DNA from: Aromatoleum anaerobium
Lineage (GTDB): Bacteria; Pseudomonadota; Gammaproteobacteria; Burkholderiales; Rhodocyclaceae
Assembly (NCBI RefSeq): GCF_012910705.2
Contig: NZ_WTVG02000039.1
Span: forward strand, 558,001-622,000
DNA: 64,000 bases
Direction: 5' to 3'
How positions within the stretch are numbered: the first letter of the stretch is position 1; the number at the start of each line of letters is the position of its first letter. The translations under genes and the position numbers were made by a program. Below, in pieces: positions 22,056 through 57,510 of this stretch. A model generated the notes under the pieces. It was not told the origin of the DNA. It searched no databases and was given only the letters and a program-made list of their open reading frames with translations.

Positions 22056-23121
22056 GGGCCTCCTCGACGATGTCGGACAGGATCTGGCGGGCGGGCTTCA
22101 TTTCGGTAACGTAGTGGATGCCCTGCCCGGCAGCTTCGGTCATCAAGTCCTTGCGCTGGTAATCCAGCGAGCCCTGGATGTAGTTAGAAGACAGGATCAT
22201 CTGCAGCGGCGGCTTCAGCACCTCGGGCGCCTGCTCACCGAGCCATTCGTTGTGCCACGGGCAACGGGTGGTTCGCATGGTGTAACCGGAGATGCAGTTC
22301 GAATAGACCGTGTCGTCGGTCTCGGCTTCGATCAGGCGCTCCTTGAGGGGCAGGTTGACGTCGGACTCGCGCGACGCAAGCCACAGCGAGCCGGTCCACA
22401 CACCGTCGGCCCCAAGCGCCAGCGCGGCGGCGAGATGACGTCCTGTGGTCACGCCGCCAGCGGCGATCACCGGCACACCCGTGCCGCGCGCCGCGTCGAC
22501 GACCTGCGGCACGATCGAGAAGGTGCCGATGTTGCCGGTGTGACCGGCTGCATCGTAGCCTTGGGCAATGATCACGTCGGTGCCGGCGTCGAGTTGTTTC
22601 TTGGCCTGGCGCGGTTTGCCGACAAGACCCCATACCTGCATGCCGAGTTCGTGCGCGCGCTTGAGCAGGAAGGCAGGCGAGCCGAGGCCGGATGCGAACA
22701 CCGGCACGCGTTCATCGAAGATGACTTCGAGTTGGGCCATTGCGCGCTTCTGGTCGAGCCCGCCCCAGTGGTGGATGTCCGGCGCAATCTTGGGATCGGG
22801 CACGTCGTACTTGCGCTTGATCATCTGCTCGAACTCGCGCTGCTCCGGCGGAATCATCGCGAGCAGTTCGTCGACGGTCTTTTCCGCTGGCACCGACGAG
22901 GGCAGTACCAGATCGATGCCGAAGGGCTTGCCGTCAACACGCTCGCGAATCCATTTGATATCGGCGGCGATCTGGTCGGGCGTGTGCAGCGCCTCGCCCA
23001 TGACCGCAAAGCCGCCGGCGTTGATGACGGCGACGGCGACGTCTTTGCAATGGGTGAAGGCGACGACCGGATATTCGATGCCGAGCTTTTCACATAATTG
23101 GGTGTGCAATGGACTGCTCAT
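22024..23121 (-). CDS. Nitronate monooxygenase / 2-nitropropane dioxygenase family flavoprotein (IpdC-like?)
   Basis: The 365-residue FMN-dependent TIM-barrel protein carries the family blocks VIIAQGYDAAGHTG, PVIAAGGVTTGRHLAAALALGADGVWTGS and SNCISGYTMRTTR. The start at 23121 has AAGGAG about 5 bases upstream. Relatives include true nitronate monooxygenases, the enoyl-ACP reductase FabK and IpdC of the actinobacterial steroid C/D-ring pathway. Given CoA-dependent neighbours and EtfB in the same operon, an acyl-CoA oxidoreductase role like IpdC is more likely than nitronate oxidation, but this is inference. Confidence 0.85.
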   Translation of the reverse strand: MSSPLHTQLCEKLGIEYPVVAFTHCKDVAVAVINAGGFAVMGEALHTPDQIAADIKWIRERVDGKPFGIDLVLPSSVPAEKTVDELLAMIPPEQREFEQMIKRKYDVPDPKIAPDIHHWGGLDQKRAMAQLEVIFDERVPVFASGLGSPAFLLKRAHELGMQVWGLVGKPRQAKKQLDAGTDVIIAQGYDAAGHTGNIGTFSIVPQVVDAARGTGVPVIAAGGVTTGRHLAAALALGADGVWTGSLWLASRESDVNLPLKERLIEAETDDTVYSNCISGYTMRTTRCPWHNEWLGEQAPEVLKPPLQMILSSNYIQGSLDYQRKDLMTEAAGQGIHYVTEMKPARQILSDIVEEALDVFDRFAAE

Positions 23122-28165: not shown

Positions 28166-29568
28166 TCCGCGACGCCGAACTTCCGTCGGGTGCGCGAGCC
28201 GATGTGCGGATCGCCGGCTCAAGGATCGCGGAAGTCGGCGCACGCCTCGCCCCGCTGCCCGGCGCAGCAGTGCTCGACGCCGGAGGCCGTGCGCTATCTG
28301 TCGGCCTGCACGACCACCATTTTCATCTGATGGCGTACACCGCGGCACTCGAATCGGTCCCCTGCGGGCCGCCACAGGTCGATTCCGCGGCGGCGCTCGC
28401 ACAAGCGCTGCGGGACGCGGAGCGTCGCCGCATGTCTCCGGGCGATGGCGGCTGGCTGCGCGGCATCGGCTATCACGAATCGGCCGCCGGCGACATCGAC
28501 CGCGACTGGCTCGACCGCATAGCGCCGGACCTGCCGCTCAGAATCCAGCACCGCAGCGGGCGGATGTGGATCTTCAATTCCTGCGGTTTGCGCAAGCTCG
28601 GCGTGACGGAAGCGAGCGACCACGATCCGCTGGAACGCATCGCCGGCCGAATGACGGGAAGATTGTATGACAGCGACGAATGGCTACGGGTGCGGCTGAC
28701 CGGCGACATGCCGTCGCTCGCCCGCGCCAGCGCCAAACTCGCGCGCTTCGGCGTGACCGGCCTCACCGACGCCGGCCTGCGCAACGGCCTGCGCGAATTC
28801 CACCACTTCGTCGGTGAACGCGAACGCGGAAAGCTGTCGCAGGACGTGCTGATGATGGGCGGGCCGGAACTCGATACGGCGCCGGACGTCGCTGGCATCC
28901 GGCGCGGCCCGACAAAGCTTTATCTGCGCGAATCCACCCTGCCTGCCTTCGACGCCTTCTGCAATGAAATCCAGCGCAGCCGGCAAGCGGGCCGGGCGGT
29001 GGCGATCCATTGCGTCACGCTCGCGGAGCTGGTGTTCGCAACGGCGGCGCTGCAGCATTGCGGTATCCATGCCGGCGACCGCATCGAGCATGCGTCGGTC
29101 GCCCCGCCGGACGCGCTCGAGCTGCTCGCCGCGCAGGGCTTGACCGTCGTCACGCAACCGAACTTCGTTTTTGAGCGCGGCGACGCGTATCTCGCCGAAG
29201 TCGCCGGAGAAGACCGGCCCTGGCTCTACCGCGGGCGCGCTTTCATCGATGCGGGCATCGCGCTGGGCGCCGGCACCGACGCGCCGTATGGCGACGCGAA
29301 TCCGTGGGCCGCGATGGCTGCCGCCGTGAATCGCCGCACGTGCGGCGGTCGCGCGCTGGGGCCCGACGAGGCACTGTCGCCGGACGAGGCCCTGGCGCTG
29401 TTTTCGACCGATCCGCTGGCTCCCGGCGGGGTGTCGCGCCGCATCACGGCCGGTGCCGCAGCCGACCTGTGCCTGCTGGACCGGAACTGGAAACAGGCTT
29501 ACGAGGAACTTGCCACGGTGCGCGTCGATGTGACGATCAAGGATGGCAGGCTGATCTGGCAGCGTTAA
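28159..29568 (+). CDS. Amidohydrolase family protein (YtcJ-like)
   Basis: The 469-residue metal-dependent hydrolase has its N-terminal metal motif HDHHFHL near residue 54, further histidines in VAIHCVTLAEL and DRIEHASV, and a late aspartate in GAGTDAPYGD. The layout matches the amidohydrolase_3/YtcJ group, whose substrates are mostly unknown (amides, lactams, enol esters). ATG 28159 overlaps the previous stop, showing translational coupling with the CaiB-like protein. Its stop codon overlaps by two bases the stop of the convergent crotonase gene. It may open a lactone or cyclic ketone-derived ring, but this is speculative. Confidence 0.87.
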   Translation: MLIRDAELPSGARADVRIAGSRIAEVGARLAPLPGAAVLDAGGRALSVGLHDHHFHLMAYTAALESVPCGPPQVDSAAALAQALRDAERRRMSPGDGGWLRGIGYHESAAGDIDRDWLDRIAPDLPLRIQHRSGRMWIFNSCGLRKLGVTEASDHDPLERIAGRMTGRLYDSDEWLRVRLTGDMPSLARASAKLARFGVTGLTDAGLRNGLREFHHFVGERERGKLSQDVLMMGGPELDTAPDVAGIRRGPTKLYLRESTLPAFDAFCNEIQRSRQAGRAVAIHCVTLAELVFATAALQHCGIHAGDRIEHASVAPPDALELLAAQGLTVVTQPNFVFERGDAYLAEVAGEDRPWLYRGRAFIDAGIALGAGTDAPYGDANPWAAMAAAVNRRTCGGRALGPDEALSPDEALALFSTDPLAPGGVSRRITAGAAADLCLLDRNWKQAYEELATVRVDVTIKDGRLIWQR

Positions 29569-30575
29569 TCGACGATCTCATCGACAAGCCCCCATTCAAG
29601 CGCAGTCGCCGCATTGATTCGGCGCGCCGACAGCGCGAGATACGCCGTGCGTTGTCGGCCGATGCGCTGCGGCAGACTGACGCAGCCACCGGCGCCGGGG
29701 ATCAGGCCAAAGCGGATTTCAGGCAACTGGAGGAACGCGTTGCGCGCCGCCGTGATCCGCACGGCAAAGGCCGGCAGTTCGATGCCGGCGCCGATACAGG
29801 CGCTATGCAGATGGAACGCCACGCGGTCTGCGCAACGAATCAGCACCGCGGCCGGCAAACGCAGGCTGCGTACCGCGTGCGCACTTGCCGGGTCGGGCGC
29901 GGTGCCGAATTCGCGTAGTTCGCCGCCGGAGCTGAAACAGGCGCCGACGCCGGAAACTCTCGCGCCGCGGATCGTTTCGTCGGCGACGACGAGTTGCAGG
30001 GCTTCGACGAGCGCGTCACGCATCTCGACTGACATCGGATTGCGGTTGCGCGGGCGGTTAAGTCTGATGTCCAAGTGCTCGCCAGCGCGCGCGATCAGCA
30101 CCGGCGGGCCGTCCTCGGCGGCGACTCCGTGCGGGGCCGGCGGGTTAGCGCGCGACCATGCGGCAAACTCGGGCCCGCCCTGCAGCGTTGAGTACGCGAG
30201 GGATTCGACGACCAGCGCCTGCGCGAGCGGCATGCCGGCGGTGACCCGCAGCACTTGTACCAGCGTCATCGCGGCGAGCGGTGCGCGCCTGATGTTCGCG
30301 GCGATGGCGTCGAGCTCGGCAAAACTGTCGAGCACGAGATCACAGGCTGTGAGCACCGCCGGATCGCTCCCTTCACCGGCGATGCCGATCACCGGACAGG
30401 GCTGGGTGCGCAGCCAGGCGGCGAGTTTGTCCGCGTCCGCCTGATCGCCGCTGACGGCTTGCACGACGAGATACGGATGCGTGTCGAACGGCGACGCGGC
30501 TGTCCCACCGGCCGAGGCGAACATCAGCTCGCGCAACCGGTCGAGGTTCAGCACCGGGACGTCGCCGGAGCCCAT
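29565..30575 (-). CDS. Crotonase-like protein with extra N-terminal half and one catalytic Glu missing
   Basis: In this 336-residue protein, residues from about 155 form a crotonase domain with oxyanion-hole block SACIGAGIELPAFA and the first catalytic glutamate in LPEIRFGLIPGAGG. The second glutamate position (AMELLLTG in the copy at 1-630) reads AYLALSARR, so it is lost. The first 150 residues resemble a degenerate crotonase half (CPVIGIAGEGSDP). One remaining glutamate is compatible with isomerase, hydrolase or lyase chemistry. It is the last gene of the leftward acyl-CoA-dehydrogenase/oxidoreductase operon, 3 bp after the F420-type oxidoreductase gene. Confidence 0.8.
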   Translation of the reverse strand: MGSGDVPVLNLDRLRELMFASAGGTAASPFDTHPYLVVQAVSGDQADADKLAAWLRTQPCPVIGIAGEGSDPAVLTACDLVLDSFAELDAIAANIRRAPLAAMTLVQVLRVTAGMPLAQALVVESLAYSTLQGGPEFAAWSRANPPAPHGVAAEDGPPVLIARAGEHLDIRLNRPRNRNPMSVEMRDALVEALQLVVADETIRGARVSGVGACFSSGGELREFGTAPDPASAHAVRSLRLPAAVLIRCADRVAFHLHSACIGAGIELPAFAVRITAARNAFLQLPEIRFGLIPGAGGCVSLPQRIGRQRTAYLALSARRINAATALEWGLVDEIVD

Positions 30576-30578: not shown

Positions 30579-31448
30579 TCAACTCATCTTTGCGATGACC
30601 TCGTCGCCGAAGCGGCGGATCGCGTCGAGTTGCGCTGTCAGGTTGGCCGGGTCGCCCTTGATGTCCCACGGCACGACGCCCGCGTGTGTGACACCGACTT
30701 CGGCGAGACGATGGAAGTCGTCGATCTTGTGCGCGCTAAAGTCGATGCCGTGGATCTCGAAGTCGCGATCCCTCGTGCCGAATTCGGCGCGATAGCCATT
30801 GAGTTCGGCGATCAGGCCCTTCAGCGTCGGCACGTCGGTATTCGCGGATACCCAACCGTCGCCGACCCGCGCAGCACGCCGCAGCGCCGGCTTGCTGTGG
30901 CCGCCGATGAAAATCGGCACCGGCTGCTCCGGCACCGGGCGCATGCGCAGCGGACCGAAATCATAATGCTTGCCATGGTGCTCGAAGAACTCCTCGCCCA
31001 TCACGCCGCGGAGGATCGCGATGCATTCGTCCATCAGCTCGCCGCGCTTGTCGAAATCGACGCCGTTGTAGAGGAAGTCCTCCTTCCACGGGCTCAGGCC
31101 GGCGCCGAGCGCGACACGGCCGTTCGACATCACCGCGAGCGAGGTCAGCAGCTTGGCGAGGATCAATGGCTGGCGCACCGGCACCTTGAGCACGCCGGGG
31201 TAGAACTTGATGCGGCTGGTCAGCGCGGCCATCGTCGACATCGCGACGAAGGGCTCGATGAAGGCCGAATGTTCAAGGTATTGCCGGATCGCGCTGGTCT
31301 CGGCATACGGGTAATCCGATTCGGTGAGCTGCGGAAAAAACAGGCTGTCGGGCATCGACAGCCAAGTCCAGCCGGCCGCCTCCGCCGCCTGTGCGATCGC
31401 CGGATAGTTGCGGAAGTTGCTGAAGCCGAGTTGCAGAACGAAGCGCAT
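30579..31448 (-). CDS. Luciferase-like (LLM-class) oxidoreductase, probably F420-dependent
   Basis: The 289-residue TIM-barrel protein of the bacterial-luciferase superfamily contains GWTWLSMPDSLFFPQ, the mid-barrel block SNGRVALGAGLSPWKEDF and PVPIFIGGHSKPALRRAA. These are typical of the F420-dependent LLM group (TIGR03619-like) of Actinobacteria. An FMN-dependent enzyme cannot be excluded, but F420 biosynthesis genes begin 2.6 kb away on the opposite strand. The start at 31448 has CAGGGGA just upstream. It is cotranscribed with two acyl-CoA dehydrogenases and a crotonase, which points to hydride transfer to or from a pathway acyl-CoA or ketone. Confidence 0.85.
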   Translation of the reverse strand: MRFVLQLGFSNFRNYPAIAQAAEAAGWTWLSMPDSLFFPQLTESDYPYAETSAIRQYLEHSAFIEPFVAMSTMAALTSRIKFYPGVLKVPVRQPLILAKLLTSLAVMSNGRVALGAGLSPWKEDFLYNGVDFDKRGELMDECIAILRGVMGEEFFEHHGKHYDFGPLRMRPVPEQPVPIFIGGHSKPALRRAARVGDGWVSANTDVPTLKGLIAELNGYRAEFGTRDRDFEIHGIDFSAHKIDDFHRLAEVGVTHAGVVPWDIKGDPANLTAQLDAIRRFGDEVIAKMS

Positions 31449-31471
31449 GAAAGTCCCCTGTTTGCGATGCG

Positions 31472-32626
31472 TCAGCGCGGCATCGCCAGCGCGCGCTCGG
31501 CGATGATGTTGAGCTGGATTTCGTTGGTGCCCGCGTAGATCGTGTCGGCGCGCGAGAAAAAGAACACTTGCTGCAGACGCCGCACCGCGTCGTCGTCGGA
31601 GCACACGTCGGCGCCGGTGCCGAGCACGTCCATCGCGAGCTGGCCGAGGTCACGGTGCCAGTTCGACCAGGCGTACTTGTAGATCAGCGATTCGGGCCGC
31701 ACGCTGCCGATGTCGCCGGCGAGCATGCGCAGCGCGTTGTGGCGCAGCGCGCGCAGGCCGATCCATGCGTCGGCGATACGTTCGCGGATCGCCGCGTCGC
31801 GGAAGGCGCCAGTCGCCAGCGCCGCATCGACGACAAGTTGCATCTCATGCACGAAATGCATCTGCTGGCCCAGCGTCGAGGCACCCCGCTCGAAACCGAG
31901 CAGCGCCATTGCCACGCGCCAGCCCTCACCCGGCTTGCCAACGACGCAGCCGGCGTCGGTCTCAGCGCCGTCGAAGAACACTGCGTTGAATTCCGATTCG
32001 CCCGTCATCTGGCGGATGGGCTGGATCTCGACACCCGGCTGGTCCAGCGGCATCAGCAGGAAAGTCAGGCCGTCGCGCCCGACCGAGCCCGGCGTGCTGC
32101 GCGCGATGACGAAAATCCAGTCGGATTCGTGCGCGAGCGAGGTCCACACTTTTTGCCCCTGCGCGCGCCACACGTCGCCGTCCTGCCAGCAGCGCGTCGT
32201 GATCGCCGCGAGGTCGGAGCCTGCCCCCGGTTCCGAATAGCCTTGGCACCAGAACTCGCGCCCCTCGCGAATACCGGGCAGGAAGCGGCGTTGCTGCTCC
32301 GGCGTGCCCAGTGATATCAGCGTCGGCGCGAGCAGAGTTTCGCCGATGTGGCCCATGCGACCGGGACCGCCGGCGCGCACGTATTCTTCGTGGAAGGCGA
32401 GTTGCAGATCCAGCGGCAGTCCGCGCCCGCCGTGTTCCTGCGGCCAGGAGAGGCCGACCCAGCCACCGTCGGCAAGTTTGCGTTCCCAGGCCTTGCGCAG
32501 CGCGGGAAAGGCTTCCTCATCACCGGGGCCGCCACGGTGGCGCAGGCAGGCGAACTCGCCCTTCAGCTCGCGCGCGAGCCAGCCGGCCACTTCCGCGCGA
32601 AAATGCGTTTCGGTCATCGAATCCAT
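31472..32626 (-). CDS. Acyl-CoA dehydrogenase, subunit 1 of a probable heteromer
   Basis: The 384-residue protein contains the FAD/substrate block WCQGYSEPGAGSDLA and the C-terminal TIYAGTNEIQLNII. At the position of the medium-chain enzyme base Glu376 it has Ala (YAGT), so the base must come from elsewhere. It lies 81 bp after a second, very different acyl-CoA dehydrogenase gene. Such adjacent pairs form alpha2-beta2 complexes in actinobacterial steroid degradation (ChsE4-ChsE5 type) that act on bulky substrates. Start 32626 is chosen because GGGAG precedes it; an upstream start would run into the GC-rich hairpin element. Confidence 0.9.
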   Translation of the reverse strand: MDSMTETHFRAEVAGWLARELKGEFACLRHRGGPGDEEAFPALRKAWERKLADGGWVGLSWPQEHGGRGLPLDLQLAFHEEYVRAGGPGRMGHIGETLLAPTLISLGTPEQQRRFLPGIREGREFWCQGYSEPGAGSDLAAITTRCWQDGDVWRAQGQKVWTSLAHESDWIFVIARSTPGSVGRDGLTFLLMPLDQPGVEIQPIRQMTGESEFNAVFFDGAETDAGCVVGKPGEGWRVAMALLGFERGASTLGQQMHFVHEMQLVVDAALATGAFRDAAIRERIADAWIGLRALRHNALRMLAGDIGSVRPESLIYKYAWSNWHRDLGQLAMDVLGTGADVCSDDDAVRRLQQVFFFSRADTIYAGTNEIQLNIIAERALAMPR

Positions 32627-32650
32627 GGTCTCCCGCCGGGCCGTCCCAAG

Positions 32651-32674
32651 GGGGGCCTGCGCCCCCTCGGGGGC
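32651..32674. repeat. Short GC-rich element with two competing hairpins
   Basis: GGGGGC (32651-32656) can pair with GCCCCC (32661-32666), and the same GCCCCC can pair with GGGGGC (32669-32674). The element lies between the two acyl-CoA dehydrogenase genes. A closely similar core, CGCCCCTCGGGGGC, occurs at 45827-45840 between the old-yellow-enzyme and MFS genes. Confidence 0.45.
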
Positions 32675-32707
32675 AGCGAACACAGTGAGCGTGGGGGTTG
32701 TTTCATT

Positions 32708-33826
32708 TCAGGCGAAATCCAGAAGATGGGTGGCGACGCGCTCACGCCAGTGGCTCGCGGCACCAAACCACTGGCTGCCCCATTGCGCGCGTTTGAAATG
32801 TAATTGGGGGTCGTATTCCCAGGTGAAGCCGACGCCGCCGTGCAGTTGCACTGCCTCCTGCGCGCAGAAGCGGTAGGCCTCGGCGGCGAGTACACGAGCG
32901 ACGGCGACTTCGCGCGCCAGCGCATCGGCGTCCTGCAGGCTGGCGACGGTTGCGGCGACGCCGCGCACCGCCGAACGCGCCGTTTCGATGCGCACCATCA
33001 TTTCGGCGCAGCGGTGCTTGATCGCCTGGAAACTCGCGACCGGTTTGCCGAACTGCACGCGCTCCTTTGTATACGCGACGGTCATTTCGAGGCACGCGGC
33101 CGCGCCGCCGACCTGCTCGGCCGCGAGTTGCAGCGCCGCGAGCGCAACCGTGCGAGTCATTCCTGCATCGATCGCCCCGGGCACGTCGATGCGTGCGTCG
33201 TCGGGCAGGCGGACATCGCGGAACGTCCATGCGGCTTGCGGTCGGGTCAGATCCCAGACGTCGAGCGGCGTACGTTCGAGTCCTACGACATCAGCCGGTA
33301 CGTGGAACAGGCCAACACCCCCGCCCTCCAGCCTCGCGGCGACGAAAGCCATCGCGGCGGAACCATCGTCGAGCACCTGCGCGGCCTCGCCCGTCATCCG
33401 CCAGCCGTCGCCATCGCGCCGGCAGTCGACGGTCAGCGTGTCCGGCGCCCACACGAGGCCGGGCGCAAGGATCAGCGTCGCGGTCGCCTCGCCGCTTGCG
33501 AGCGACGGCAACCAGCGCGCCTGCGCCGACGCGTCGGCGGCTTCGATCAGCGCGGTCTGCGCAAGCACGACGCTGGCGAAGAACGGCGAGCGGATCAGCC
33601 GGCGCCCCATTTCTTCCATCAGCAACGCGAGTTCCACCGCGCCCATGCCGAGCCCGTCGAACGCCTCGGGCACCTGGACCGCAGCCCAGCCCAGCTCGGC
33701 GATGCGGCGCCACAGCGCGGCGTCGTCCTCCCGCGGCTTGCGGGCATTGGCGAACTCGGCGAGAAACGCGGCGGCAGTGTCCTGCAGCGCGAGTTGCTCA
33801 TCGGAAAGCAGCAGCACGTTTTCCAT
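32708..33826 (-). CDS. Acyl-CoA dehydrogenase, subunit 2 of a probable heteromer
   Basis: The 372-residue protein starts at 33826 (MENVLLLSDEQ), with GGGA about 7 bases upstream. It shows the acyl-CoA dehydrogenase C-domain block YTKERVQFGKPVASFQAIKH and the helix QEAVQLHGGVGFTWEYD. It lacks the terminal YxGT block of its neighbour. The N-terminal domain is divergent. Two complementary, degenerate subunits fit the alpha2-beta2 architecture known from cholesterol side-chain enzymes. It is the first gene of the operon with the second dehydrogenase, the F420-type oxidoreductase and the crotonase, and has a 19-bp motif copy 66 bp upstream. Confidence 0.9.
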   Translation of the reverse strand: MENVLLLSDEQLALQDTAAAFLAEFANARKPREDDAALWRRIAELGWAAVQVPEAFDGLGMGAVELALLMEEMGRRLIRSPFFASVVLAQTALIEAADASAQARWLPSLASGEATATLILAPGLVWAPDTLTVDCRRDGDGWRMTGEAAQVLDDGSAAMAFVAARLEGGGVGLFHVPADVVGLERTPLDVWDLTRPQAAWTFRDVRLPDDARIDVPGAIDAGMTRTVALAALQLAAEQVGGAAACLEMTVAYTKERVQFGKPVASFQAIKHRCAEMMVRIETARSAVRGVAATVASLQDADALAREVAVARVLAAEAYRFCAQEAVQLHGGVGFTWEYDPQLHFKRAQWGSQWFGAASHWRERVATHLLDFA

Positions 33827-33892
33827 TGGCAGTCCCGTGATTCCCCGTGGGATTTTGGTCAGGCCCATTCTGACAACCGGGCAACTGCCTCA

Positions 33893-33911
33893 CATCATCC
33901 AATGGGACTAA
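33893..33911 (-). promoter_or_regulatory. Putative operator, 19-bp motif copy C (acyl-CoA dehydrogenase operon)
   Basis: Read on the minus strand this is TTAGTCCCATTGGATGATG, 17 of 19 matches to the consensus. It ends 66 bp before the start codon at 33826 in the same orientation relative to the gene as the other copies. Confidence 0.6.
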
Positions 33912-34019
33912 GACCGCCCCTGCCCAACCTGCCAGGCAGCCCGTGGCCAGAAATGCACCCCTCCCCGCGGCACCGATAGTACAAAAGAACGATGTGCGGC
34001 CGGATCGGCGCTGATAGCT

Positions 34020-34045
34020 TTTGCCCCACATCGAACAGGGGCAAA
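34020..34045 (+). promoter_or_regulatory. Hairpin covering the ribosome site of the F420:NADP reductase gene
   Basis: TTTGCCCC (34020-34027) pairs perfectly with GGGGCAAA (34038-34045) over a 10-base loop, and the ATG follows at 34050. The only plausible Shine-Dalgarno bases (AGGGG) lie in the right arm, so folding would hide them. A translational control role is inference. Confidence 0.45.
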
Positions 34046-34049
34046 GAGC

Positions 34050-34727
34050 ATGACGATAGAGGCAGGGAAAGTGATTGGTGTCGTCGGTGGCACCGGCCAT
34101 CTCGGCGCGGCGCTGGCGCGGCGCTGGGCGAAGGCCGGCTACGGGATCGTCATCGGGTCGCGCGATGCGGACAAGGCCCGCGTCGCGGCCGACGCGCTCG
34201 GCGCCGAACAGGGGCGGAGCATCGCGTCCGGCACAAACAAGGCTGCCGCGGAACGGGCTGACATCGTCGTCGTGACCGTTCCCTTCGCGTCGCAGGCAGC
34301 GGTGCTCGACGAGATCCGCCCCGTCGTCGCCGGCAAGATCGTTGTCGACACCACGGTACCGCTGGTGCCGCCGAAGGTGATGCGCGTGCAGCTGCCGGCC
34401 GAAGGCTGCGCTGCGGCGCGTGCGCAGGCGCTGCTCGGAGCCGACGTGCGCGTCGTGTCGGCCTTCCACAACGTCGCCGCGCACAAGCTCGCGACCGACG
34501 AGCTCGTCGAATGCGACGTGCTGGTGTTCGGCGACGACAAGGCTGCACGCGCCGAAGTCGTCGCATTGGCCGACGCCGCCGGTCTGCGCGGCCTGCATGC
34601 CGGTGCGCTGGCGAACTCAGCCGCGGCCGAGGCGCTGACCTCGATCCTGATCTTCATGAACCGCAACTACGCGGTCGACGGTGCCGGCATCCGCATCACC
34701 GGCGAACTCAACGCAATCGCGGACTAG
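34050..34727 (+). CDS. npdG: F420H2:NADP+ oxidoreductase (NADPH-dependent F420 reductase)
   Basis: This 225-residue Fno/NpdG-family protein reversibly transfers hydride between NADPH and coenzyme F420. The N-terminal Rossmann motif VIGVVGGTGHLGAALARRWA and the NADP-phosphate-binding IGSRDADKAR are clear. The F420-side block VVSAFHNVAAHKL and the C-terminal NAVDGAGIRITG-like segment (here YAVDGAGIRITG) match the family. It is the first gene of the F420 cluster, with cofE starting 4 bp after its stop. It would supply F420H2 to the F420-dependent reductases at 9216 and 30579. Confidence 0.95.
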   Translation: MTIEAGKVIGVVGGTGHLGAALARRWAKAGYGIVIGSRDADKARVAADALGAEQGRSIASGTNKAAAERADIVVVTVPFASQAAVLDEIRPVVAGKIVVDTTVPLVPPKVMRVQLPAEGCAAARAQALLGADVRVVSAFHNVAAHKLATDELVECDVLVFGDDKAARAEVVALADAAGLRGLHAGALANSAAAEALTSILIFMNRNYAVDGAGIRITGELNAIAD

Positions 34728-34731
34728 CGAC

Positions 34732-35499
34732 ATGGCCGCGCCGCTCTCCTTCACAGCCATTACGGGAATCCCGGCGATAGCCGCGGGCGACGATCTCGCG
34801 CCGATCATCGCGAACGCCATCGAGGCCGCTGGCCTGGCCGTGAATGAGGGCGACGTACTCGTCGTCGCGCAGAAAATCGTCTCCAAGGCCGAAGACCGCT
34901 TCGCCGACCTGCGTGAAGTCGTGCCTTCCGCCCGCGCGCGGGAACTCTCACAGATCACCGGCAAGGACGCGCGCGTCGTCGAACTGGTGTTGTCCGAATC
35001 GACCGTGGTGCTGCGCGCGGTGCCGAACGTGCTGATCGTGCGCCACCGCCTCGGCTACGTGATGGCCAACGCCGGCATCGATCGCTCGAATGTCGCGAGC
35101 GCCGATGGCGAGGAGCGCGTGCTGCTGTTGCCGCTGGACCCGGATGTCTCGGCGGAGCGGCTGCGCACCGGGCTGCATACATTGACCGGCATCGCCCCCG
35201 GCGTAATCGTCAGCGACAGTTTCGGCCGGCCGTGGCGCACGGGCGTCGTCAATGTCGCGCTCGGTACGGCTGGGGTGCCCTCGCTGATCGACCGCCGTGG
35301 CGAGACCGATCTCTACGGGCGCAAACTCGAAATCACCCAGGTCGCGTTCGCCGATGCACTAACGGCCGGCGCCGCGCTGGTGATGGGCGAAGGCGCCGAA
35401 GGCACGCCGGCGGTGCTGGTGCGCGGCGCCCAACATGACGCACCGCTGGCAAACGCCCAGGCGCTGATCCGCCCGTTCGCCGAGGACCTGTTCCAATGA
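34732..35499 (+). CDS. cofE: Coenzyme F420-0:L-glutamate ligase
   Basis: The 255-residue CofE adds glutamate residues to F420-0 using GTP. The conserved DVLVVAQKIVSKAEDR block near residue 43, IVRHRLGYVMANAGID and VSDSFGRPWRTGVVNVALG are all present. It is a stand-alone CofE without the extra C-terminal nitroreductase domain of mycobacterial FbiB. It overlaps the start of the cofD-like gene by 4 bp (ATGA), so translation is coupled. The sequence appears complete and functional. Confidence 0.95.
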   Translation: MAAPLSFTAITGIPAIAAGDDLAPIIANAIEAAGLAVNEGDVLVVAQKIVSKAEDRFADLREVVPSARARELSQITGKDARVVELVLSESTVVLRAVPNVLIVRHRLGYVMANAGIDRSNVASADGEERVLLLPLDPDVSAERLRTGLHTLTGIAPGVIVSDSFGRPWRTGVVNVALGTAGVPSLIDRRGETDLYGRKLEITQVAFADALTAGAALVMGEGAEGTPAVLVRGAQHDAPLANAQALIRPFAEDLFQ

Positions 35500-36089
35500 G
35501 CCCCCCGATCGCGGCACTTTCCGGCGGCGTCGGCGGTGCCAAGCTCGCCGACGGCCTGATGCGCGTGCTGCCGCCCGACACACTCACCGTCATCGTCAAC
35601 ACCGGCGACGACTTCCGCCATCTCGGCCTGCACGTTTCGCCCGACGTCGACACCGCGCTGTACACGCTCGCCGGCCTCGCCAATCCGGAAACCGGCTGGG
35701 GCCGGCGCGACGAGACCTGGAATTTCATGCGCGCGCTCGAAGCGCTGGGCGGCGAAACCTGGTTCCGCCTCGGCGACGGCGATCTCGCGATGCACGTCGA
35801 ACGCACGCGACGCCTCGCGGACGGCGACACGCTCAGCCGCATCACCGCCGATACCGCACGCCGTCTCGGCATTCCGGCGCAGATCTTGCCGATGAGCGAC
35901 GACCCGGTGCATACCCGCGTCGCGACCGCTGACGGCCTGCTCGACTTCCAGGACTACTTTGTGCGCCTGCAGTGCCGGCCGGCAGTTAGCGCATTGCACT
36001 TCGACAGTGCCGAGCATGCACGACCGGCCCCGCAAGCGCTCGCCGCGCTCGCCTTCGCCGCGACGCTGCGCGAAGGAGCGACGGTATGA
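35496..36089 (+). CDS. cofD: CofD-like 2-phospho-L-lactate transferase, shortened
   Basis: The N-terminal part is a clear CofD/FbiA: ALSGGVGGAKLADGL, VNTGDDFRHLGLHVSPD and GWGRRDETWNFM. CofD transfers the phospho-lactyl (or 3-phosphoglyceryl) group onto Fo to make F420-0. The family is about 310-330 residues long; this one has 197. The region after ARPAPQALAALAFA, which should contain the APSNPxxSIxxIL motif and the remaining C-terminal domain, is missing. The stop codon overlaps the cofC start (ATGA), the normal operon junction, so an internal in-frame deletion of roughly 110-125 codons is more likely than a premature stop. Confidence 0.88.
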   Translation: MSPPIAALSGGVGGAKLADGLMRVLPPDTLTVIVNTGDDFRHLGLHVSPDVDTALYTLAGLANPETGWGRRDETWNFMRALEALGGETWFRLGDGDLAMHVERTRRLADGDTLSRITADTARRLGIPAQILPMSDDPVHTRVATADGLLDFQDYFVRLQCRPAVSALHFDSAEHARPAPQALAALAFAATLREGATV

Positions 36090-36802
36090 GTTGCTGGGCG
36101 CTGATCCCGATCAAGACCCTGTCGCTCGGCAAGGGACGCCTGGCCGGCGCGCTGTCGCCGGCCGAACGCCAGCGGCTGATCCGCAAGATGCTCGACCGTG
36201 TGCTGGCCGCGCTTACCGCATCACGCCTCGTCGAGGGTATCGCGATCGTCACGCCCGAATGCCGCGCTCTGGCGGGCAAGGCCACGCTGCTGCCCGACCG
36301 CGGCGCAGGCCTCAACGGCTCGATCGCGGATGCGGCACAGAGCCTCGCCGCATTTGGTGCAACCGAACTGCTGGTGCTGCACGGCGATCTGCCGCTGGTG
36401 AACCGGGTCGAAATCGACCGGATCATCACACTCGGCCGCAGCACCGGCCTCGCGCTCGCGCCGGACCGGCGCCGCCAGGGCACCAACGCGATCTACCTGC
36501 AGCCCGACAGCGGTTTCGAATTCCGCTTCGGCACGCACAGTTTCGCCAGCCATCAGGCGGAGGCCGCGCGCTGCGGCCTCCGACCGACGGTGGTCGACCT
36601 GCCCGGTCTCGCGTTCGATGTCGACGAAGCGCCCGACCTTGACCTGCTGGGCGACCTGCTCGTCGACCTGCGCGAGGGTGCAAAAATGAGCCCACAAGTC
36701 AGCACGCAAATGCGCACGCAAGACTTCCCGATCAATTCCCGGAGCGTCCCGATATGGCAACCAGTGCAACCCGAATACTCGCTGATGCACGCGCGGGACT
36801 GA
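36086..36802 (+). CDS. cofC: 2-phospho-L-lactate (or 3-phosphoglycerate) guanylyltransferase
   Basis: The 238-residue CofC/FbiD homologue makes the GDP-activated side-chain precursor of F420. The nucleotidyltransferase signature IPIKTLSLGKGRLAG at the N-terminus, the LLVLHGDLPLV metal-binding block and RRRQGTNAIYLQP are clear. In Paraburkholderia the homologue prefers 3-phosphoglycerate, giving 3PG-F420; which substrate applies here is unknown. GAAGGAG precedes the ATG at 36086. The last 30 residues are atypical and run 49 bp into the fbiC gene. Confidence 0.93.
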   Translation: MSCWALIPIKTLSLGKGRLAGALSPAERQRLIRKMLDRVLAALTASRLVEGIAIVTPECRALAGKATLLPDRGAGLNGSIADAAQSLAAFGATELLVLHGDLPLVNRVEIDRIITLGRSTGLALAPDRRRQGTNAIYLQPDSGFEFRFGTHSFASHQAEAARCGLRPTVVDLPGLAFDVDEAPDLDLLGDLLVDLREGAKMSPQVSTQMRTQDFPINSRSVPIWQPVQPEYSLMHARD

Positions 36803-39138
36803 GGCTCACCGCCACGCAAGCCGGCATACTGGCGGCTGAGCGCGATCCGGGCCCGCTGCTTGAAACCGCCGAAGCGTTGACGCTCACCGGCCACGGTCGC
36901 GTGGTCAGTTGGTCGCGCAAGGTCTTCATCCCGCTCACGCGCCTATGCCGCAATGCTTGCGGCTACTGCACATTTGCCGAATCGCCGAATCAAATGGAAA
37001 GCGCCTTCCTGACGCCCGACGAAGTGCTGGCGATCGCGAGGGCCGGCGCCGAAGCCGGTTGCCGCGAGGCACTGCTGACGCTCGGCGAGAAACCCGAACT
37101 GCGCCACGCCATGGCCCGCGACGCGCTCGCCACGCTCGGCTTCACCACGACGATCGAGTATGTGGCGGCGATCGCGCGCCGGATCTTTGAAGAAACCGGC
37201 CTGCTGCCGCATATCAATCCGGGCAACATGTCGCCTGCGGATCTCGCCCTGCTGCGGCCGGTCTCCGCCTCGATGGGCATCATGCTCGAATCCGCGTCAG
37301 CGAGGCTGTGCGAGCGCGGCGGCCCGCACTGGAAATGCCCGGACAAGCACCCCGAAGTCCGGCTCGCGACGATCCGCCATGCCGGCGAGCAGTCGGTCGC
37401 ACTGACCAGCGGCATTCTGATCGGCATCGGCGAAACGCGGCTGGAACGTGTCCAAGCCCTGCTCGCGCTGCGCGAACTCAACGACATACACGGCCACCTG
37501 CAGGAAATCATCATCCAGAATTTCCGCGCGAAGCCGGGCACCGCGATGGCCGCCGCATCGGAACCGGACCTCGCCGAACACCAGTGGACGATCGCTATCG
37601 CCAGGCTGATCTTCGGACCATCGATGTCGATCCAGGCGCCACCGAACCTGCGCCCCAGCGAGCTCGCGCCGCTGATCCGCGCCGGTATCAACGACTGGGG
37701 CGGGGTGTCGCCGGTTACCCCGGACCACGTCAACCCGGAAGCCTGCTGGCCGCACATTGCCACGCTGCGCAGCGAAACCGAAGCCGCCGGCCGGCATCTC
37801 GTCGAACGCCTCGCGCTGGTGCCGAACTTCGCACAACACGCTGGCCGCTGGACGGATCTGGCGATGTGCAAGGCGGTGCTGCGCCACACCGACGCACAAG
37901 GCTTTGCCCGTAACGACGACTGGCACGCCGGCGCCGGGACGCCGCCGCCTCCGCTCGCGCTCGTCCGCGGGGCAACGCCGAACGGCCGGCCCGATGCCGG
38001 CATCGCGCGCCTGATCGATCAGGCGTGCGCCGGCCACACGCTCGGCGAAGACGCCATCGCGACGCTGTTCACCGCACGCGGCGCGGATTTCGACGCTGTC
38101 GTCGCCGCCGCCGACCGCCTGCGCGCGGCGACCGTCGGCGACGCGGTGTCCTGGGTGACGAACTGCAACATCAATTACACCAACATCTGCCTGCATCGTT
38201 GCGGTTTCTGCGCATTCGCCAAGGGCCGCAGCGCCGAATCACTGCGCGGACCGGCCTACCGGCTCGACCCGGACGCCGTGGCGCAGCGCGCCCTTGAGGC
38301 CCACGCACGCGGCGCCACCGAAGTGTGCCTGCAGGGCGGCATCCACCCGGACTACACCGGCGAGTCGTACCTCGACATCGTCGCCGCGGTAAAGCATGCG
38401 GTGCCGGACATGCACATCCACGCGTTCTCGCCGCTGGAAATCCGCCACGGTGCAACGACGCTGGGCCTGTCCGCCGGCGATTTCCTGCGCCGCCTGCGCG
38501 CGGCCGGTCTCGGCACCCTGCCCGGCACCGCTGCCGAAGTGCTCGACGACGAGGTGCGCGCGCTGCTGTGCCCGGACAAGCTCAACACCGAAGAATGGCT
38601 CGACATCGTGCGCACCGCACACGAGGCGGGCGTGCGCACGACCTCGACGATCATGTTCGGCCACGTCGACACGCCGCATCACTGGGCACGCCACCTGCTG
38701 CGGCTGCGCGCGCTGCAGCAGCAAACCGGCGGCATCACCGAATTCGTGCCGCTGCCCTTCGTGCATATGGAATCGCCGCTGTGGCACAAGGGCCGCAGCC
38801 GCTCGGGTCCGACGTTGCGCGAAGCGCTGCTGATGCACGCGATCGGCCGGCTCGCGCTGCACCCGCTGATCCCGAACATCCAGACCTCGTGGGTCAAAAT
38901 GGGGCCCGCCGGCGCCGCGCTGTGCCTGCAGGCCGGCGCCAACGATCTTGGCGGCACGCTGATGTACGAATCGATCACGCGCGCGGCCGGCGGCGCTAAC
39001 GGCCAGGAAATGGACGCGGCAGGCATGAACGGCATTGCCACTAGCATCGGCCGCCCGCTGTGGCGCCGCACGACGCTGTACGAAGACGTTGTCGCAACGC
39101 CCGCGCCCCGCTGCGCGCAAGAAACCTGCATGAACTGA
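36754..39138 (+). CDS. fbiC: Fused 7,8-didemethyl-8-hydroxy-5-deazariboflavin (Fo) synthase, CofG-CofH fusion
   Basis: This 794-residue protein joins both radical-SAM halves of Fo synthase in one chain. The CofG half has its FeS motif CRNACGYC at residues 65-72. The CofH half has CLHRCGFC at about residues 479-486. Together they build the deazaflavin ring from tyrosine and a ribityl-uracil intermediate. The fused form is characteristic of Actinobacteria and some eukaryotes, whereas many bacteria and archaea use separate cofG and cofH, so acquisition from an actinobacterial line is possible. The order npdG-cofE-cofD-cofC-fbiC makes this a self-contained F420 operon apart from the shortened cofD. 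Confidence 0.97.
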   Translation: MATSATRILADARAGLRLTATQAGILAAERDPGPLLETAEALTLTGHGRVVSWSRKVFIPLTRLCRNACGYCTFAESPNQMESAFLTPDEVLAIARAGAEAGCREALLTLGEKPELRHAMARDALATLGFTTTIEYVAAIARRIFEETGLLPHINPGNMSPADLALLRPVSASMGIMLESASARLCERGGPHWKCPDKHPEVRLATIRHAGEQSVALTSGILIGIGETRLERVQALLALRELNDIHGHLQEIIIQNFRAKPGTAMAAASEPDLAEHQWTIAIARLIFGPSMSIQAPPNLRPSELAPLIRAGINDWGGVSPVTPDHVNPEACWPHIATLRSETEAAGRHLVERLALVPNFAQHAGRWTDLAMCKAVLRHTDAQGFARNDDWHAGAGTPPPPLALVRGATPNGRPDAGIARLIDQACAGHTLGEDAIATLFTARGADFDAVVAAADRLRAATVGDAVSWVTNCNINYTNICLHRCGFCAFAKGRSAESLRGPAYRLDPDAVAQRALEAHARGATEVCLQGGIHPDYTGESYLDIVAAVKHAVPDMHIHAFSPLEIRHGATTLGLSAGDFLRRLRAAGLGTLPGTAAEVLDDEVRALLCPDKLNTEEWLDIVRTAHEAGVRTTSTIMFGHVDTPHHWARHLLRLRALQQQTGGITEFVPLPFVHMESPLWHKGRSRSGPTLREALLMHAIGRLALHPLIPNIQTSWVKMGPAGAALCLQAGANDLGGTLMYESITRAAGGANGQEMDAAGMNGIATSIGRPLWRRTTLYEDVVATPAPRCAQETCMN

Positions 39139-39161
39139 ATAACCCGGAACAAGGAAGAAAC

Positions 39162-39782
39162 ATGGCACTGCAAATCCAGGAAAACTTCCAGGTGGCGGCC
39201 CCCATCGATGCGGTGTGGGAATTCCTGCTCAATCCGGAAAACGTCGTCGCCTGCATGCCCGGCGCGTCGCTGAACCAGATCGTTGACGACAAGAGCTTCA
39301 TCGGCTCGGTGAAACTCAAGATCGGCGCCGTCAGCGCGCAATACCAGGGGACGATCACCTATCTCGACAAGGACAAGGCCAGTCACACGGTGAAAATGCT
39401 CGCCTCCGGCAACGAACGCGGTGGAGGCACGGTCAGCGGCACGATCATCACTCGCCTCGCCGCCTCACCGGACAGCCGCAGCACCGAAGTCAGCTGCGAG
39501 TCGAGCGTCGATCTCACCGGGCGTATCGTCCAGGTCGGCCGCGGCATGATTGAAGGCGTGTCGGCGCAGATCATCAAGAAATACGTGAATAACGTGCGGG
39601 CGCTGCTCGAAGTCCCGCGCGATGCGCCGCCCGCCGCAGCCGGCGAAACGGCCGCCGCATCAGGTTCCGAACCTCGCCCGGTGCCGCAGAAGGAAGACTC
39701 GATCAATATCGTCGCGGTGGTATTCAAGGTCATCTTCGAGCGCATCGCCGGCTTCTTCCGCCGCATGCTCGGCCGCGCCTGA
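39162..39782 (+). CDS. CoxG/SRPBCC-family protein with C-terminal hydrophobic tail
   Basis: The 206-residue protein has an N-terminal SRPBCC domain (QIQENFQVAAPIDAVWEFLLNPENVVACMPGA) of the CO-dehydrogenase subunit G family. After a Pro/Ala linker comes a C-terminal amphipathic, arginine-rich stretch (VVFKVIFERIAGFFRRMLG) that could bind the membrane. CoxG anchors or matures molybdenum hydroxylases. AAGGAAG stands before the ATG at 39162, 23 bp after fbiC, so it probably belongs to the F420 operon. No molybdenum hydroxylase structural gene is present nearby. Confidence 0.88.
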   Translation: MALQIQENFQVAAPIDAVWEFLLNPENVVACMPGASLNQIVDDKSFIGSVKLKIGAVSAQYQGTITYLDKDKASHTVKMLASGNERGGGTVSGTIITRLAASPDSRSTEVSCESSVDLTGRIVQVGRGMIEGVSAQIIKKYVNNVRALLEVPRDAPPAAAGETAAASGSEPRPVPQKEDSINIVAVVFKVIFERIAGFFRRMLGRA

Positions 39783-45896: not shown

Positions 45897-47339
45897 ATGG
45901 ACTCACGTACGGCGTGGAAGATTTATCTCGCCCTGCTGTTCGGCACTTTCGTCACGATCGAAGCCGCAGCCTTCCAGGCCCCGGCGTTGCCGAGCCTGAC
46001 GAAGCATTTTGGCATCCCGATCAATCTCGCGGCGCTGATCCTGCTGATGTATTCGCTCGGGGTCACGGTGTTCGCGCCAATCATGGGCCGCCTCGGCGAC
46101 CAGATCGGGCGCAAGCGCGTGCTCCTCGTCGGCCTGCTCGGCTTCGCGCTGTCGGAAATCGCTGCCGCAAGCGCCGCGAACTTCCCCATCTTCCTCGCCG
46201 CGCGTTTCCTGCAGGGGCTCAGCGTCGCCTGCATCCTGCCGGGCGTGTTCGCCTACATCGGCCACCTGTTTCCCGAACAGCGGCGCGGCATGGCACTCGG
46301 CATCTTCGCGATGACGATGACGCTCGGCGCGGCCAGCGGCGGTCTGCTCGGGGGTCTGCTGATCGACCGTTTCGGCTGGCCCAGCGTCTACTGGATCAGC
46401 GGCGCGCTCGCCTTCGTCGGCATCCTGCCGGTGATGATGCTGGTGCCCGATCTGCGCAGCACCCAGTCCCCGGCCCGCTTCGACCTGAAAGGCGCGCTGT
46501 GCCTGTTCGCGACGATCGGCGCGCTGCTGTCGCTACCGACCTGGGTCGGCAACTTCGGCGCCAGCTCGCCCTACACCGCCGTCATCGCCGCGACCGGCAT
46601 CCTCGGCCTCGCGATGCTGTGGCGCACCGGTCAGCGTGCCGCCGCGCCGGTCGTGGACATCGCCATCCTGCGCCACCGCGCGTTCGCGCTCCCCAGTGCA
46701 ATCTACTGGCTGCACCTGGTGTCCTTCAGCGGCATTGTTTATGCGCTGGCCTTCTTCATCAACGGCCGACCCGGCGGCAGCGCCTCGCAGTTCGGCTTCG
46801 TCGCGCTGTTCCTGTACGGCAGCAGCATGCTCAGCGCCCCGCTCGCCGGCCGCCTGATCGACCGCCTCGCACCGCGCACGGTAACGATTTTCTCGCTCAC
46901 CGGCACCCTGCTCGGGCTCGCGCTGCTGCTCGGCATCCGCGTTGACACCCCGCTCTGGTTCATCGTCGCGACCGTCTGCCTGCTCGGACTGATGATGGGC
47001 AGCAACTCGCCGGCGGTGATGAAGCTCGCGATCGGGGCCGTGCCGTGCGACAAGATGGGTGCCGGCACCGGACTGTTCAGCATGCTGCGCGACCTCGGCG
47101 CGCCGACCGGATCATCCCTGTCGCTTGCTGTGTTCAGCACCTCGCTGGCCATCCACACCCGGCAGGGGAACCCCGACGCGCTGGCCGCCGCGCTGTCGAA
47201 TGTCGGCTACCTGCTCGGCGGCCTGATCAGCGTCGCGCTGCTGCTGAGCCTGCGCCTCGAAAGGGGGCCGGCCCGCAGCAGCGCCGAATCCGTCAGCGCC
47301 CCGCCGCGCGACGCCCTGCCATCCGACCAAAGAACGTAG
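45897..47339 (+). CDS. MFS transporter (DHA2-like, about 14 helices)
   Basis: This 480-residue inner-membrane transporter starts at 45897 with GGGAGAC upstream. The MFS loop motif GRLGDQIGRKRVLL follows helix 2, and the motif-C-like GAASGGLLGGLLIDRFGW lies in helix 5. Number and spacing of hydrophobic segments fit 14 helices, as in drug:H+ antiporters of the DHA2 group. It could export a toxic intermediate or take up substrate. Its last 47 bases overlap the end of the convergent ketosteroid-dehydrogenase-like gene. Confidence 0.9.
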   Translation: MDSRTAWKIYLALLFGTFVTIEAAAFQAPALPSLTKHFGIPINLAALILLMYSLGVTVFAPIMGRLGDQIGRKRVLLVGLLGFALSEIAAASAANFPIFLAARFLQGLSVACILPGVFAYIGHLFPEQRRGMALGIFAMTMTLGAASGGLLGGLLIDRFGWPSVYWISGALAFVGILPVMMLVPDLRSTQSPARFDLKGALCLFATIGALLSLPTWVGNFGASSPYTAVIAATGILGLAMLWRTGQRAAAPVVDIAILRHRAFALPSAIYWLHLVSFSGIVYALAFFINGRPGGSASQFGFVALFLYGSSMLSAPLAGRLIDRLAPRTVTIFSLTGTLLGLALLLGIRVDTPLWFIVATVCLLGLMMGSNSPAVMKLAIGAVPCDKMGAGTGLFSMLRDLGAPTGSSLSLAVFSTSLAIHTRQGNPDALAAALSNVGYLLGGLISVALLLSLRLERGPARSSAESVSAPPRDALPSDQRT

Positions 47340-54966: not shown

Positions 54967-54985
54967 GGCGGGGTTGAGGTTCTGT

Positions 54986-57492: not shown

Positions 57493-57510
57493 TGCCGGCC
57501 ACCTCTGATC

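What the first reader, a model, noticed from the sequence alone, without database searches (positions are those of the whole stretch)
30579..39138. Self-contained F420 module wired into an acyl-CoA catabolic cluster of a proteobacterium
The window joins F420 biosynthesis (cofE, cofD-like, cofC, fused cofG-cofH), the F420:NADP reductase npdG, an LLM-type oxidoreductase (30579) and a Ddn/FDOR-type reductase (9216) with CoA-transferases, acyl-CoA dehydrogenases and ring-cleavage-like crotonases. F420-dependent catabolism is known mainly from Actinobacteria (picrate reduction, for example). Here the F420-type oxidoreductase shares an operon with two acyl-CoA dehydrogenases, so F420H2 may perform a committed step on a pathway thioester or ketone. 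This could be a new F420-dependent degradation pathway.
Basis: partly seen in the sequence, partly recalled or inferred. Interest (0 to 1): 0.88.

Follow-up and report, generated by a model that had tools for sequence, protein, structure and literature searches.

The report
F420 in anaerobic androgen breakdown genes
A denitrifying soil bacterium keeps genes for making and using the unusual cofactor F420 inside its gene island for degrading male steroid hormones without oxygen, which points to an unrecognised F420-dependent step in that pathway.

Summary
The genes are real: npdG, cofE, cofC, fused cofGH, an LLM beside two acyl-CoA dehydrogenases, and a Ddn-type reductase. Not self-contained: CofD lacks about 120 internal residues; a full-length CofD operon lies 100 kb away. 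Genus Aromatoleum. Published atcA primers, marker of oxygen-independent androgen degradation, match this contig with 1 and 0 mismatches, 1173 bp apart, 20 kb before the window. In 17 genus genomes LLM, Ddn and AtcA share the same 8. In 50 genomes Ddn occurs in 25 of 25 with AtcA, 0 of 25 without, though 18 of these carry CofD. CofD: 29 of 29 further LLM genomes, 15 of 369 of the class. Best reading: F420H2 serves androgen catabolism; Ddn, paired with a BaiCD-like enzyme, may be the C4-C5 reductase making the AtcABC substrate; the LLM step is undefined. Against: one genome keeps LLM and Ddn without CofD/CofE; LLM could be FMN-dependent. No activity tested. F420 genes already appear, uncommented, in a steroid-cluster legend; no listed paper proposed the link.

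The parts
34050..34727 (+). npdG, F420:NADP oxidoreductase (225 aa)
   Evidence: TIGR01915 182.1 bits over cut-off 149.8
34732..35499 (+). cofE, F420-0:L-glutamate ligase (255 aa)
   Evidence: TIGR01916 262 bits over cut-off 180.65, scored on the longer ORF 34681-35499; start by codon score
35496..36089 (+). cofD remnant (197 aa) with an internal in-frame deletion of about 120 residues; the original tail and the stop overlapping the cofC start are kept
   Evidence: TIGR01819 187 bits, below cut-off 257, positions 3-187/301; alignment to 14 full-length CofD; tail compared with G013; lengths
36086..36802 (+). cofC (238 aa), glycine at the 3-PG diagnostic position
   Evidence: TIGR03552 148 bits over cut-off 105
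36754..39138 (+). cofGH (FbiC-type fused FO synthase, 794 aa), overlapping cofC by 49 bases
   Evidence: NF006687 1082.8 bits over cut-off 1018; the CofG match begins at residue 52 of the ORF from 36754, which argues against the later codon-score start 36994
39162..39782 (+). CoxG-like protein following cofGH
   Evidence: PF06240 9.4e-20 on the ORF 39060-39782; follows cofGH in L032, L035-L038
30579..31448 (-). LLM-class oxidoreductase (289 aa), predicted F420-dependent
   Evidence: TIGR03619 185.5 bits over cut-off 166.9; 29 of 29 further LLM-bearing genomes encode CofH and CofD
31472..32626 (-). acyl-CoA dehydrogenase 1 (PimC-like, below the curated cut-off)
   Evidence: PF00441/PF02770/PF02771; 90-93% identical in the Aromatoleum LLM loci
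32708..33826 (-). acyl-CoA dehydrogenase 2 (PimD/IpdE2-like, below those curated cut-offs)
   Evidence: NF050027 174 bits, cut-off 450; best PDB sequence match 6wy8
29565..30575 (-). crotonase-like protein, 3 bases after LLM on the same strand
   Evidence: PF00378 over residues 169-335 only; gap
9216..9734 (-). Ddn-type FDOR-A reductase with a SLAGYD motif invariant in 26 aligned orthologue rows
   Evidence: PF04075 1.5e-30; Foldseek ranks 1-16 are Ddn and related reductases; orthologue in 25 of 25 AtcA genomes, 0 of 25 others; motif
7092..9089 (-). BaiCD-like OYE/FAD reductase paired with Ddn
   Evidence: PF00724 and Pyr_redox_2; NF041087 325 bits, cut-off 825; next to Ddn in relatives
22024..23121 (-). 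NMO-family flavoprotein, possible IpdC counterpart
   Evidence: PF03060; 94-96% identical where complete in the Aromatoleum LLM loci; that IpdC is of this family is recalled
47293..48762 (-). KstD-like FAD-binding dehydrogenase, adjacent to LLM in some relatives
   Evidence: NF005510 745 bits over cut-off 481; beside LLM in L061, L066, L067
702..1127 (-). ChsH2-like OB-fold protein, partner type of Ltp aldolases (partner role recalled)
   Evidence: PF01796 4.3e-23, PF12172
2291..3454 (-). Ltp-like lipid-transfer/thiolase-fold protein
   Evidence: PF22691; best PDB match 6ok1, lipid-transfer protein

Best explanation
The window is part of an Aromatoleum island for oxygen-independent androgen degradation (2,3-seco pathway). 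F420 is made from two partly redundant operons; the window copy now depends on the CofD of the copy about 100 kb away. NpdG reduces F420 with NADPH. F420H2 then serves steroid-ring redox steps through the Ddn-type FDOR-A and the LLM. Shown here: the genes, their order, their co-occurrence, and atcA on the same contig. Inferred: F420 binding and all chemistry. My preferred step for Ddn, together with or instead of the adjacent BaiCD-like enzyme, is reduction of the C4-C5 bond of the 1,4-dien-3-one, giving the 1-en-3-one on which AtcABC acts. The LLM step is unassigned: probably a ketone/alcohol or enone interconversion on a steroid intermediate.
For: atcA primers from PMC5554518 match L088 with 1 and 0 mismatches, 1173 bp apart (expected by chance 0.01 and 0.00), inside an 804-aa molybdopterin hydroxylase with FAD and Fe-S partners. 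LLM, Ddn and AtcA occur in the same 8 of 17 genus genomes. Ddn orthologue in 25 of 25 AtcA genomes and 0 of 25 others; on the same contig in 17 of 25, within 5 kb in 7 and within 30 kb in 15. CofD in 29 of 29 further LLM genomes against 15 of 369 of the class. F420 genes lie within about 20 kb of LLM in several lineages. The Ddn model's first 16 structural hits are Ddn and related reductases. A mycobacterial FDOR-A reduces 2-cyclohexen-1-one (PMC5449967 passages). T. terpenica 58Eu, reported to degrade testosterone anaerobically (PMC9980454 section 6), has LLM, CofD, CofH, AtcA and Ddn.
Against: G002 (single contig, 100% complete) keeps LLM, Ddn, AtcA, cofC and cofGH but has no CofD (E up to 1e-10) or CofE, and its npdG is frameshifted: the pathway is decaying there, or F420 is dispensable, or the assembly is wrong. 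13 of the 29 further LLM-bearing genomes lack an AtcA orthologue, so LLM is not tied to the anaerobic A-ring route. The LLM fold does not separate F420 from FMN; its best sequence and structure matches are the FMN enzyme SfnG. In Caenibius tardaugens another LLM, described without F420, is a Baeyer-Villiger monooxygenase of progesterone (PMC12239570 passages). The OYE tracks AtcA as tightly as Ddn. A metatranscriptome paper annotated 16 transcripts as 3-ketosteroid delta4-reductase, family not stated in what I saw (PMC6208644), so a different gene may already carry that name. P values ignore shared ancestry. No expression or activity data.
Confidence: 0.75

Rival explanations
1. The BaiCD-like OYE (7092-9089) alone reduces the C4-C5 bond with NAD(P)H; Ddn does something else, such as quinone reduction, and F420 is accessory.
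For: BaiCD-type enzymes act on 3-oxo-delta4 steroids (recalled; NCBIfam names the best-matching models after mycofactocin OYE and bile-acid BaiCD, below cut-off). The OYE was found in 24 of the 25 AtcA genomes, and in the 25th, G119, it is present but cut by the contig end (L100).
Against: Does not explain why an F420-type reductase is retained with AtcA in 25 of 25 genomes, nor the F420 genes beside LLM and Ddn. G016 has a 63% OYE homologue without AtcA.
Confidence: 0.35
2. LLM and/or Ddn use FMN or FAD; the LLM may be a flavin-dependent monooxygenase such as a type II Baeyer-Villiger enzyme, and the F420 operon is a neighbour for other reasons.
For: LLM fold and best PDB matches include FMN enzymes. 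A Caenibius LLM oxidises progesterone, with no mention of F420 in that paper (PMC12239570); I had no sequence of it to compare. G002 keeps LLM and Ddn without CofD/CofE.
Against: 37 of 38 distinct LLM-bearing genomes have CofD, a trait of 15 of 369 class genomes. LLM passes the F420-type TIGR03619 cut-off. Ddn's first 16 structural hits are Ddn and related reductases. An oxygenase would not serve an anaerobic route.
Confidence: 0.15
3. The window cluster serves another cyclic isoprenoid (monoterpene, sterol or bile-acid side chain), not androgens.
For: Thauera terpenica was isolated on monoterpenes (reference title in PMC4097962). Ltp/ChsH2 and CoA-transferases suggest side-chain chemistry. 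13 of 29 further LLM genomes lack AtcA.
Against: atcA on the same contig; LLM, Ddn and AtcA in 8 of 8 against 0 of 9 genomes of the genus; atcABC is reported for T. terpenica and T. butanivorans, and for Azoarcus/Aromatoleum in general (PMC9980454), and atcA for Azoarcus toluclasticus (PMC5554518).
Confidence: 0.15
4. The 197-aa CofD still works, so the window operon is self-sufficient.
For: 57 of 58 retained invariant residues are intact and the reading frame and stop overlap are kept.
Against: 32 of 90 invariant residues are missing, including the CPSNP and SP..G..KGP segments; a full CofD exists elsewhere; G002, G004, G006 and G012 lack cofE and cofD at this locus.
Confidence: 0.06

Closest known systems
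Anaerobic 2,3-seco androgen/cholesterol pathway (Steroidobacter and Sterolibacterium denitrificans, Thauera terpenica; AtcABC)
   Same: atcA with FAD and Fe-S partners on the same contig; Ltp/thiolase, CoA-transferase, ACAD and IpdC-type genes of the kinds listed for Sterolibacterium (PMC6678751 figure 11 legend)
   Different: F420 synthesis, an LLM and a Ddn-type reductase belong to the conserved set; the review section assigns them no role. The legend lists cofC, cofD and cofE genes without comment
Actinobacterial Ddn/FDOR-A reductases
   Same: PF04075; same fold, 44% identity to Ddn 3r5r over 108 columns
   Different: Invariant SLAGYD where the Ddn chain reads SKGGAE; proteobacterial steroid island
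Actinobacterial picrate/nitrophenol F420 system (NpdG plus LLM hydride transferases; recalled)
   Same: NpdG and an LLM within a catabolic cluster
   Different: Steroid context; LLM subfamily TIGR03619; biosynthesis genes in the same cluster
Mycetohabitans 3PG-F420 (PMC8764529)
   Same: Betaproteobacterial F420 genes; CofC's closest solved structure is 7p97, the 3-PG enzyme
   Different: Glycine instead of serine/threonine at the diagnostic CofC position; npdG, LLM and Ddn present
Caenibius tardaugens progesterone LLM (PMC12239570, passages)
   Same: LLM-family enzyme used in steroid degradation
   Different: Oxygen-dependent Baeyer-Villiger reaction, no F420 mentioned; sequences not compared

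Membership tests
F420 biosynthesis operon | CofE, CofC and fused CofGH over curated cut-offs | tested here: met
F420 biosynthesis operon | Intact CofD in the same operon | tested here: not met
   197 aa, internal deletion, below cut-off; full copy elsewhere in the genome
TIGR03619 F420-type LLM | Score over curated cut-off | tested here: met
   185.5 against 166.9 bits
TIGR03619 F420-type LLM | Binds and uses F420 | not testable with these tools
   Fold ambiguous between F420 and FMN; co-occurrence supports F420
FDOR-A (Ddn) reductase | PF04075 domain and FDOR-A fold | tested here: met
FDOR-A (Ddn) reductase | F420H2-dependent reduction | not testable with these tools
   needs an enzyme assay
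Anaerobic 2,3-seco androgen pathway | atcABC in the genome | tested here: met
   Published primers match, 1173 bp apart; subunit domains; 83% identity to the T. terpenica 58Eu protein
Anaerobic 2,3-seco androgen pathway | Growth on androgens without oxygen | not testable with these tools
   strain not named; no culture data
3PG-F420 producer | Ser/Thr at CofC position 162 (Mycetohabitans numbering) | tested here: not met
   Gly in the window copy, the second copy and 12 of 12 relatives printed, read by eye because the script's pattern found none

The most novel reading that the evidence does not exclude
Ddn (9216-9734) is the 3-ketosteroid delta4-reductase of oxygen-independent androgen catabolism, a step with no gene named in the review section I read: F420H2 donates a hydride to C5 of the steroid 1,4-dien-3-one and makes the AtcABC substrate, so F420 is required for anaerobic steroid breakdown in denitrifying Proteobacteria.
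Probability: 0.33. Interest if true: 0.87.

Novelty: new variant of a known kind. Interest (0 to 1): 0.72.

Why it matters
A 2021 F420 review says of bacteria outside the Actinobacteria that no F420H2-dependent reductases had been investigated experimentally there (PMC8498797 passages). In the 2,3-seco pathway, a 2019 review names the delta4-reductase only as an activity and calls the testosterone ring-A hydrolase and the ring-B cleavage unidentified (PMC6678751 section 13). A strict genomic tie between an F420-type reductase and AtcABC gives a named gene and named strains (T. terpenica 58Eu, T. butanivorans, A. toluclasticum) in which to test both. It would also give F420 a growth-linked catabolic role in denitrifiers that remove steroid hormones.

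Tried and rejected
Tried without gain: structure prediction of the LLM (pLDDT 94) and Foldseek did not decide F420 or FMN. The NCBIfam models IpdE2 and HsaB score far below their cut-offs, so I do not name the acyl-CoA dehydrogenases IpdE or the flavin reductase HsaB. L006, downstream of the window, was searched with 14 window proteins without a hit and scanned for ORFs, but not annotated. Several competing-frame ORFs gave no domain. The codon-score start of cofGH (36994) was rejected for 36754 because the CofG domain begins upstream of it; the tree used the shorter form of the window protein.

Rejected: an acyl-CoA substrate for LLM; 3PG-F420; LLM as a marker of the anaerobic route (13 of 29 further LLM genomes lack AtcA). 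Dropped before the 25-of-25 count: weak AtcA-like matches (33-39% identity) and two weak Ddn-like matches (G109 43%, G122 40%). G108, with a 60% full-length and a 74% partial AtcA match, was counted as positive. In some searches, genomes of 29 of the 35 loci were given: five others were already held as G001, G003, G004, G006 and G013, and L061 shares a genome with L060. In some searches, L060 was left out because contig lengths show it is G038.

Literature searches for a prior link: 11 of 11 listed; 5 of 5; 15 of 21; 20 of 79; 15 of 521; 15 of 837; 10 of 152. Of the papers listed, only PMC6678751 held both subjects on point, as a gene list in a legend. The likely primary source (a 2017 genome paper, recalled) is not held, so a remark there cannot be excluded.

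Full report
What is there. The F420 genes in the window are npdG-cofE-cofD-cofC-cofGH-coxG on the + strand: a 4-base gap, two 4-base overlaps, a 49-base overlap if cofGH starts at 36754, and a 23-base gap. Divergent from them is ACAD2-ACAD1-LLM-crotonase, with gaps of 81, 23 and 3 bases. CofE, CofC, CofGH, NpdG and the LLM pass curated NCBIfam cut-offs. The Ddn-like protein at 9216 passes PF04075 and TIGR00026.

CofD is broken here. The window CofD has 197 residues, against 316 in A. diolicum (G013) and in the second copy. Against 14 full-length homologues, 32 of 90 invariant residues are missing and 57 of the remaining 58 are unchanged. Compared with G013, both the start and the native tail, including the stop that overlaps cofC, are kept, so the loss is an internal in-frame deletion, probably recent. 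The same genome has a second operon with cofE, a 316-aa CofD, cofC and cofGH at C13:490-495 kb. In relatives the LLM-linked operon is complete in G013, while G002, G004, G006 and G012 lack cofE and cofD there. G012 and G006 carry a separate cofE-cofD pair about 100 and 130 kb from LLM on the same contig. G012 has one CofH and one CofD in all, in different places. CofGH of the LLM-linked loci forms its own clade (support 99/99), apart from the second operon.

Where it comes from. Genome-search runs G001-G016 the same genus. So the genus is Aromatoleum; the strain itself is unnamed.

What the island does. A molybdopterin hydroxylase at C13:535102-537513 carries both published atcA primer sites, with 1 and 0 mismatches and 1173 bp between their outer ends; the paper gives about 1100 and about 1200 bp (PMC5554518 passages). 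Its neighbours are the FAD and Fe-S subunits, a second luciferase-family protein, a crotonase, a SnoaL-like protein and a CoA-transferase. It is 83% identical to the protein of T. terpenica 58Eu, which is reported to degrade testosterone anaerobically (PMC9980454 section 6). That paper states that T. butanivorans and T. terpenica carry atcABC and reports such genes in Azoarcus and Aromatoleum (passages).

Co-occurrence. Among 17 genomes of the genus, LLM, AtcA and Ddn are each present in G000, G001, G002, G003, G004, G006, G012 and G013 and absent from the other nine; Fisher P 4e-5, ancestry ignored. CofD is in seven of those eight and in two genomes without LLM. Outside the genus, 29 of 29 LLM-bearing genomes have CofH (28 over the cut-off) and 29 of 29 have CofD over the cut-off. 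A class-wide sample has CofD in 15 of 369. Counting distinct genomes, 37 of 38 LLM-bearing genomes have CofD; the exception is G002. The Ddn orthologue (60% identity or more) is in 25 of 25 genomes with an AtcA orthologue (59% or more) and in 0 of 25 without. Of those 25 without, 18 carry CofD, so Ddn follows AtcA and not F420 in general. These 50 genomes were chosen by genus, by LLM or (three) by CofD, not at random. Ddn and AtcA are on one contig in 17 of 25 genomes, within 5 kb in 7 and within 30 kb in 15; in G043 they are 565 kb apart. Ddn is next to the BaiCD-like OYE in the window and in 25 of 25 other regions read, from 24 genomes.

Mechanism. The review says the 1,4-dien-3-one is reduced to the 1-en-3-one before AtcABC, names the activity a delta4-dehydrogenase/reductase, and leaves the testosterone ring-A hydrolase and the ring-B cleavage unidentified (PMC6678751 section 13). 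A metatranscriptome paper annotated 16 transcripts as 3-ketosteroid delta4-reductase; the passages I saw do not give the enzyme family (PMC6208644). FDOR enzymes reduce electrophilic alkenes by hydride transfer from F420H2, and the FDOR-A MSMEG_2027 reduces 2-cyclohexen-1-one (PMC5449967 passages). Ring A of the substrate is such an enone. The Ddn model (pLDDT 91.5) has Ddn and related actinobacterial reductases at Foldseek ranks 1-16. From this I infer Ddn, alone or with the OYE, as the C4-C5 reductase. This is inference; the OYE alone is a serious rival. For the LLM I infer F420 dependence from co-occurrence and the TIGR03619 score; its substrate is open.

Results against. G002 keeps LLM, Ddn and AtcA while lacking CofD and CofE, with a frameshifted npdG. 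13 of 29 further LLM-bearing genomes lack AtcA. The LLM's best structural match is an FMN enzyme. An LLM of Caenibius tardaugens is a progesterone Baeyer-Villiger monooxygenase, with F420 not mentioned (PMC12239570 passages). The OYE tracks AtcA as closely as Ddn does.

Novelty. In the papers listed by searches (partial listings where the hits were many) I saw none that proposes F420 in bacterial steroid degradation. One review legend lists CofC, CofD and CofE genes of Sterolibacterium denitrificans among its steroid clusters without comment. The genome G043 has cofC-cofD-cofE followed by an acyl-CoA synthetase-like gene in the same order. The main text of the F420 review has no occurrence of steroid or cholesterol. 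So the parts are known, the neighbourhood was in print as annotation, and the functional link is new as far as these searches reach.

Noticed in passing
window 1541-2287: A DDE_3 transposase gene lies between the ChsH2-like OB gene (702-1127) and the Ltp gene (2291-3454), which are direct neighbours in the related loci L089-L094: an insertion has separated a presumed aldolase pair.
   Followed up: partly
L088:960-1883 (C13:530960-531883): A second luciferase-family protein (PF00296) sits upstream of atcB-atcC-atcA; another LLM, 40-41% identical to the window LLM, is next to OYE-Ddn in L096 and L098, from the genomes of Seongchinamella sediminis and Pseudohalioglobus lutimaris.
   Followed up: no
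L036:6468-7150 (G002): npdG is split by a frameshift in a single-contig genome that also lacks cofD and cofE: a decaying F420 pathway or a sequencing error.
   Followed up: partly
window 26738-28165: CoA-transferase family III protein in which only residues 229-410 match the Pfam domain; homologues in relatives align over nearly its full length.
   Followed up: no
window 53677-63415: Mobile-element end of the window: AcaB-like regulator, IS66 transposase, AbiEii-like gene, TatD-like gene.
   Followed up: no
L005:1889-10141 (C13:539889-548141): PAPS reductase, APS kinase, two SnoaL-like and one sulfotransferase gene between atcABC and the window; possible steroid sulfate metabolism.
   Followed up: no
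G006 and G012, LLM-linked versus distant F420 loci: Two F420 operons in Aromatoleum look as if they were losing complementary genes: cofC-cofGH kept at the LLM locus, cofE-cofD kept at the distant one.
   Followed up: partly
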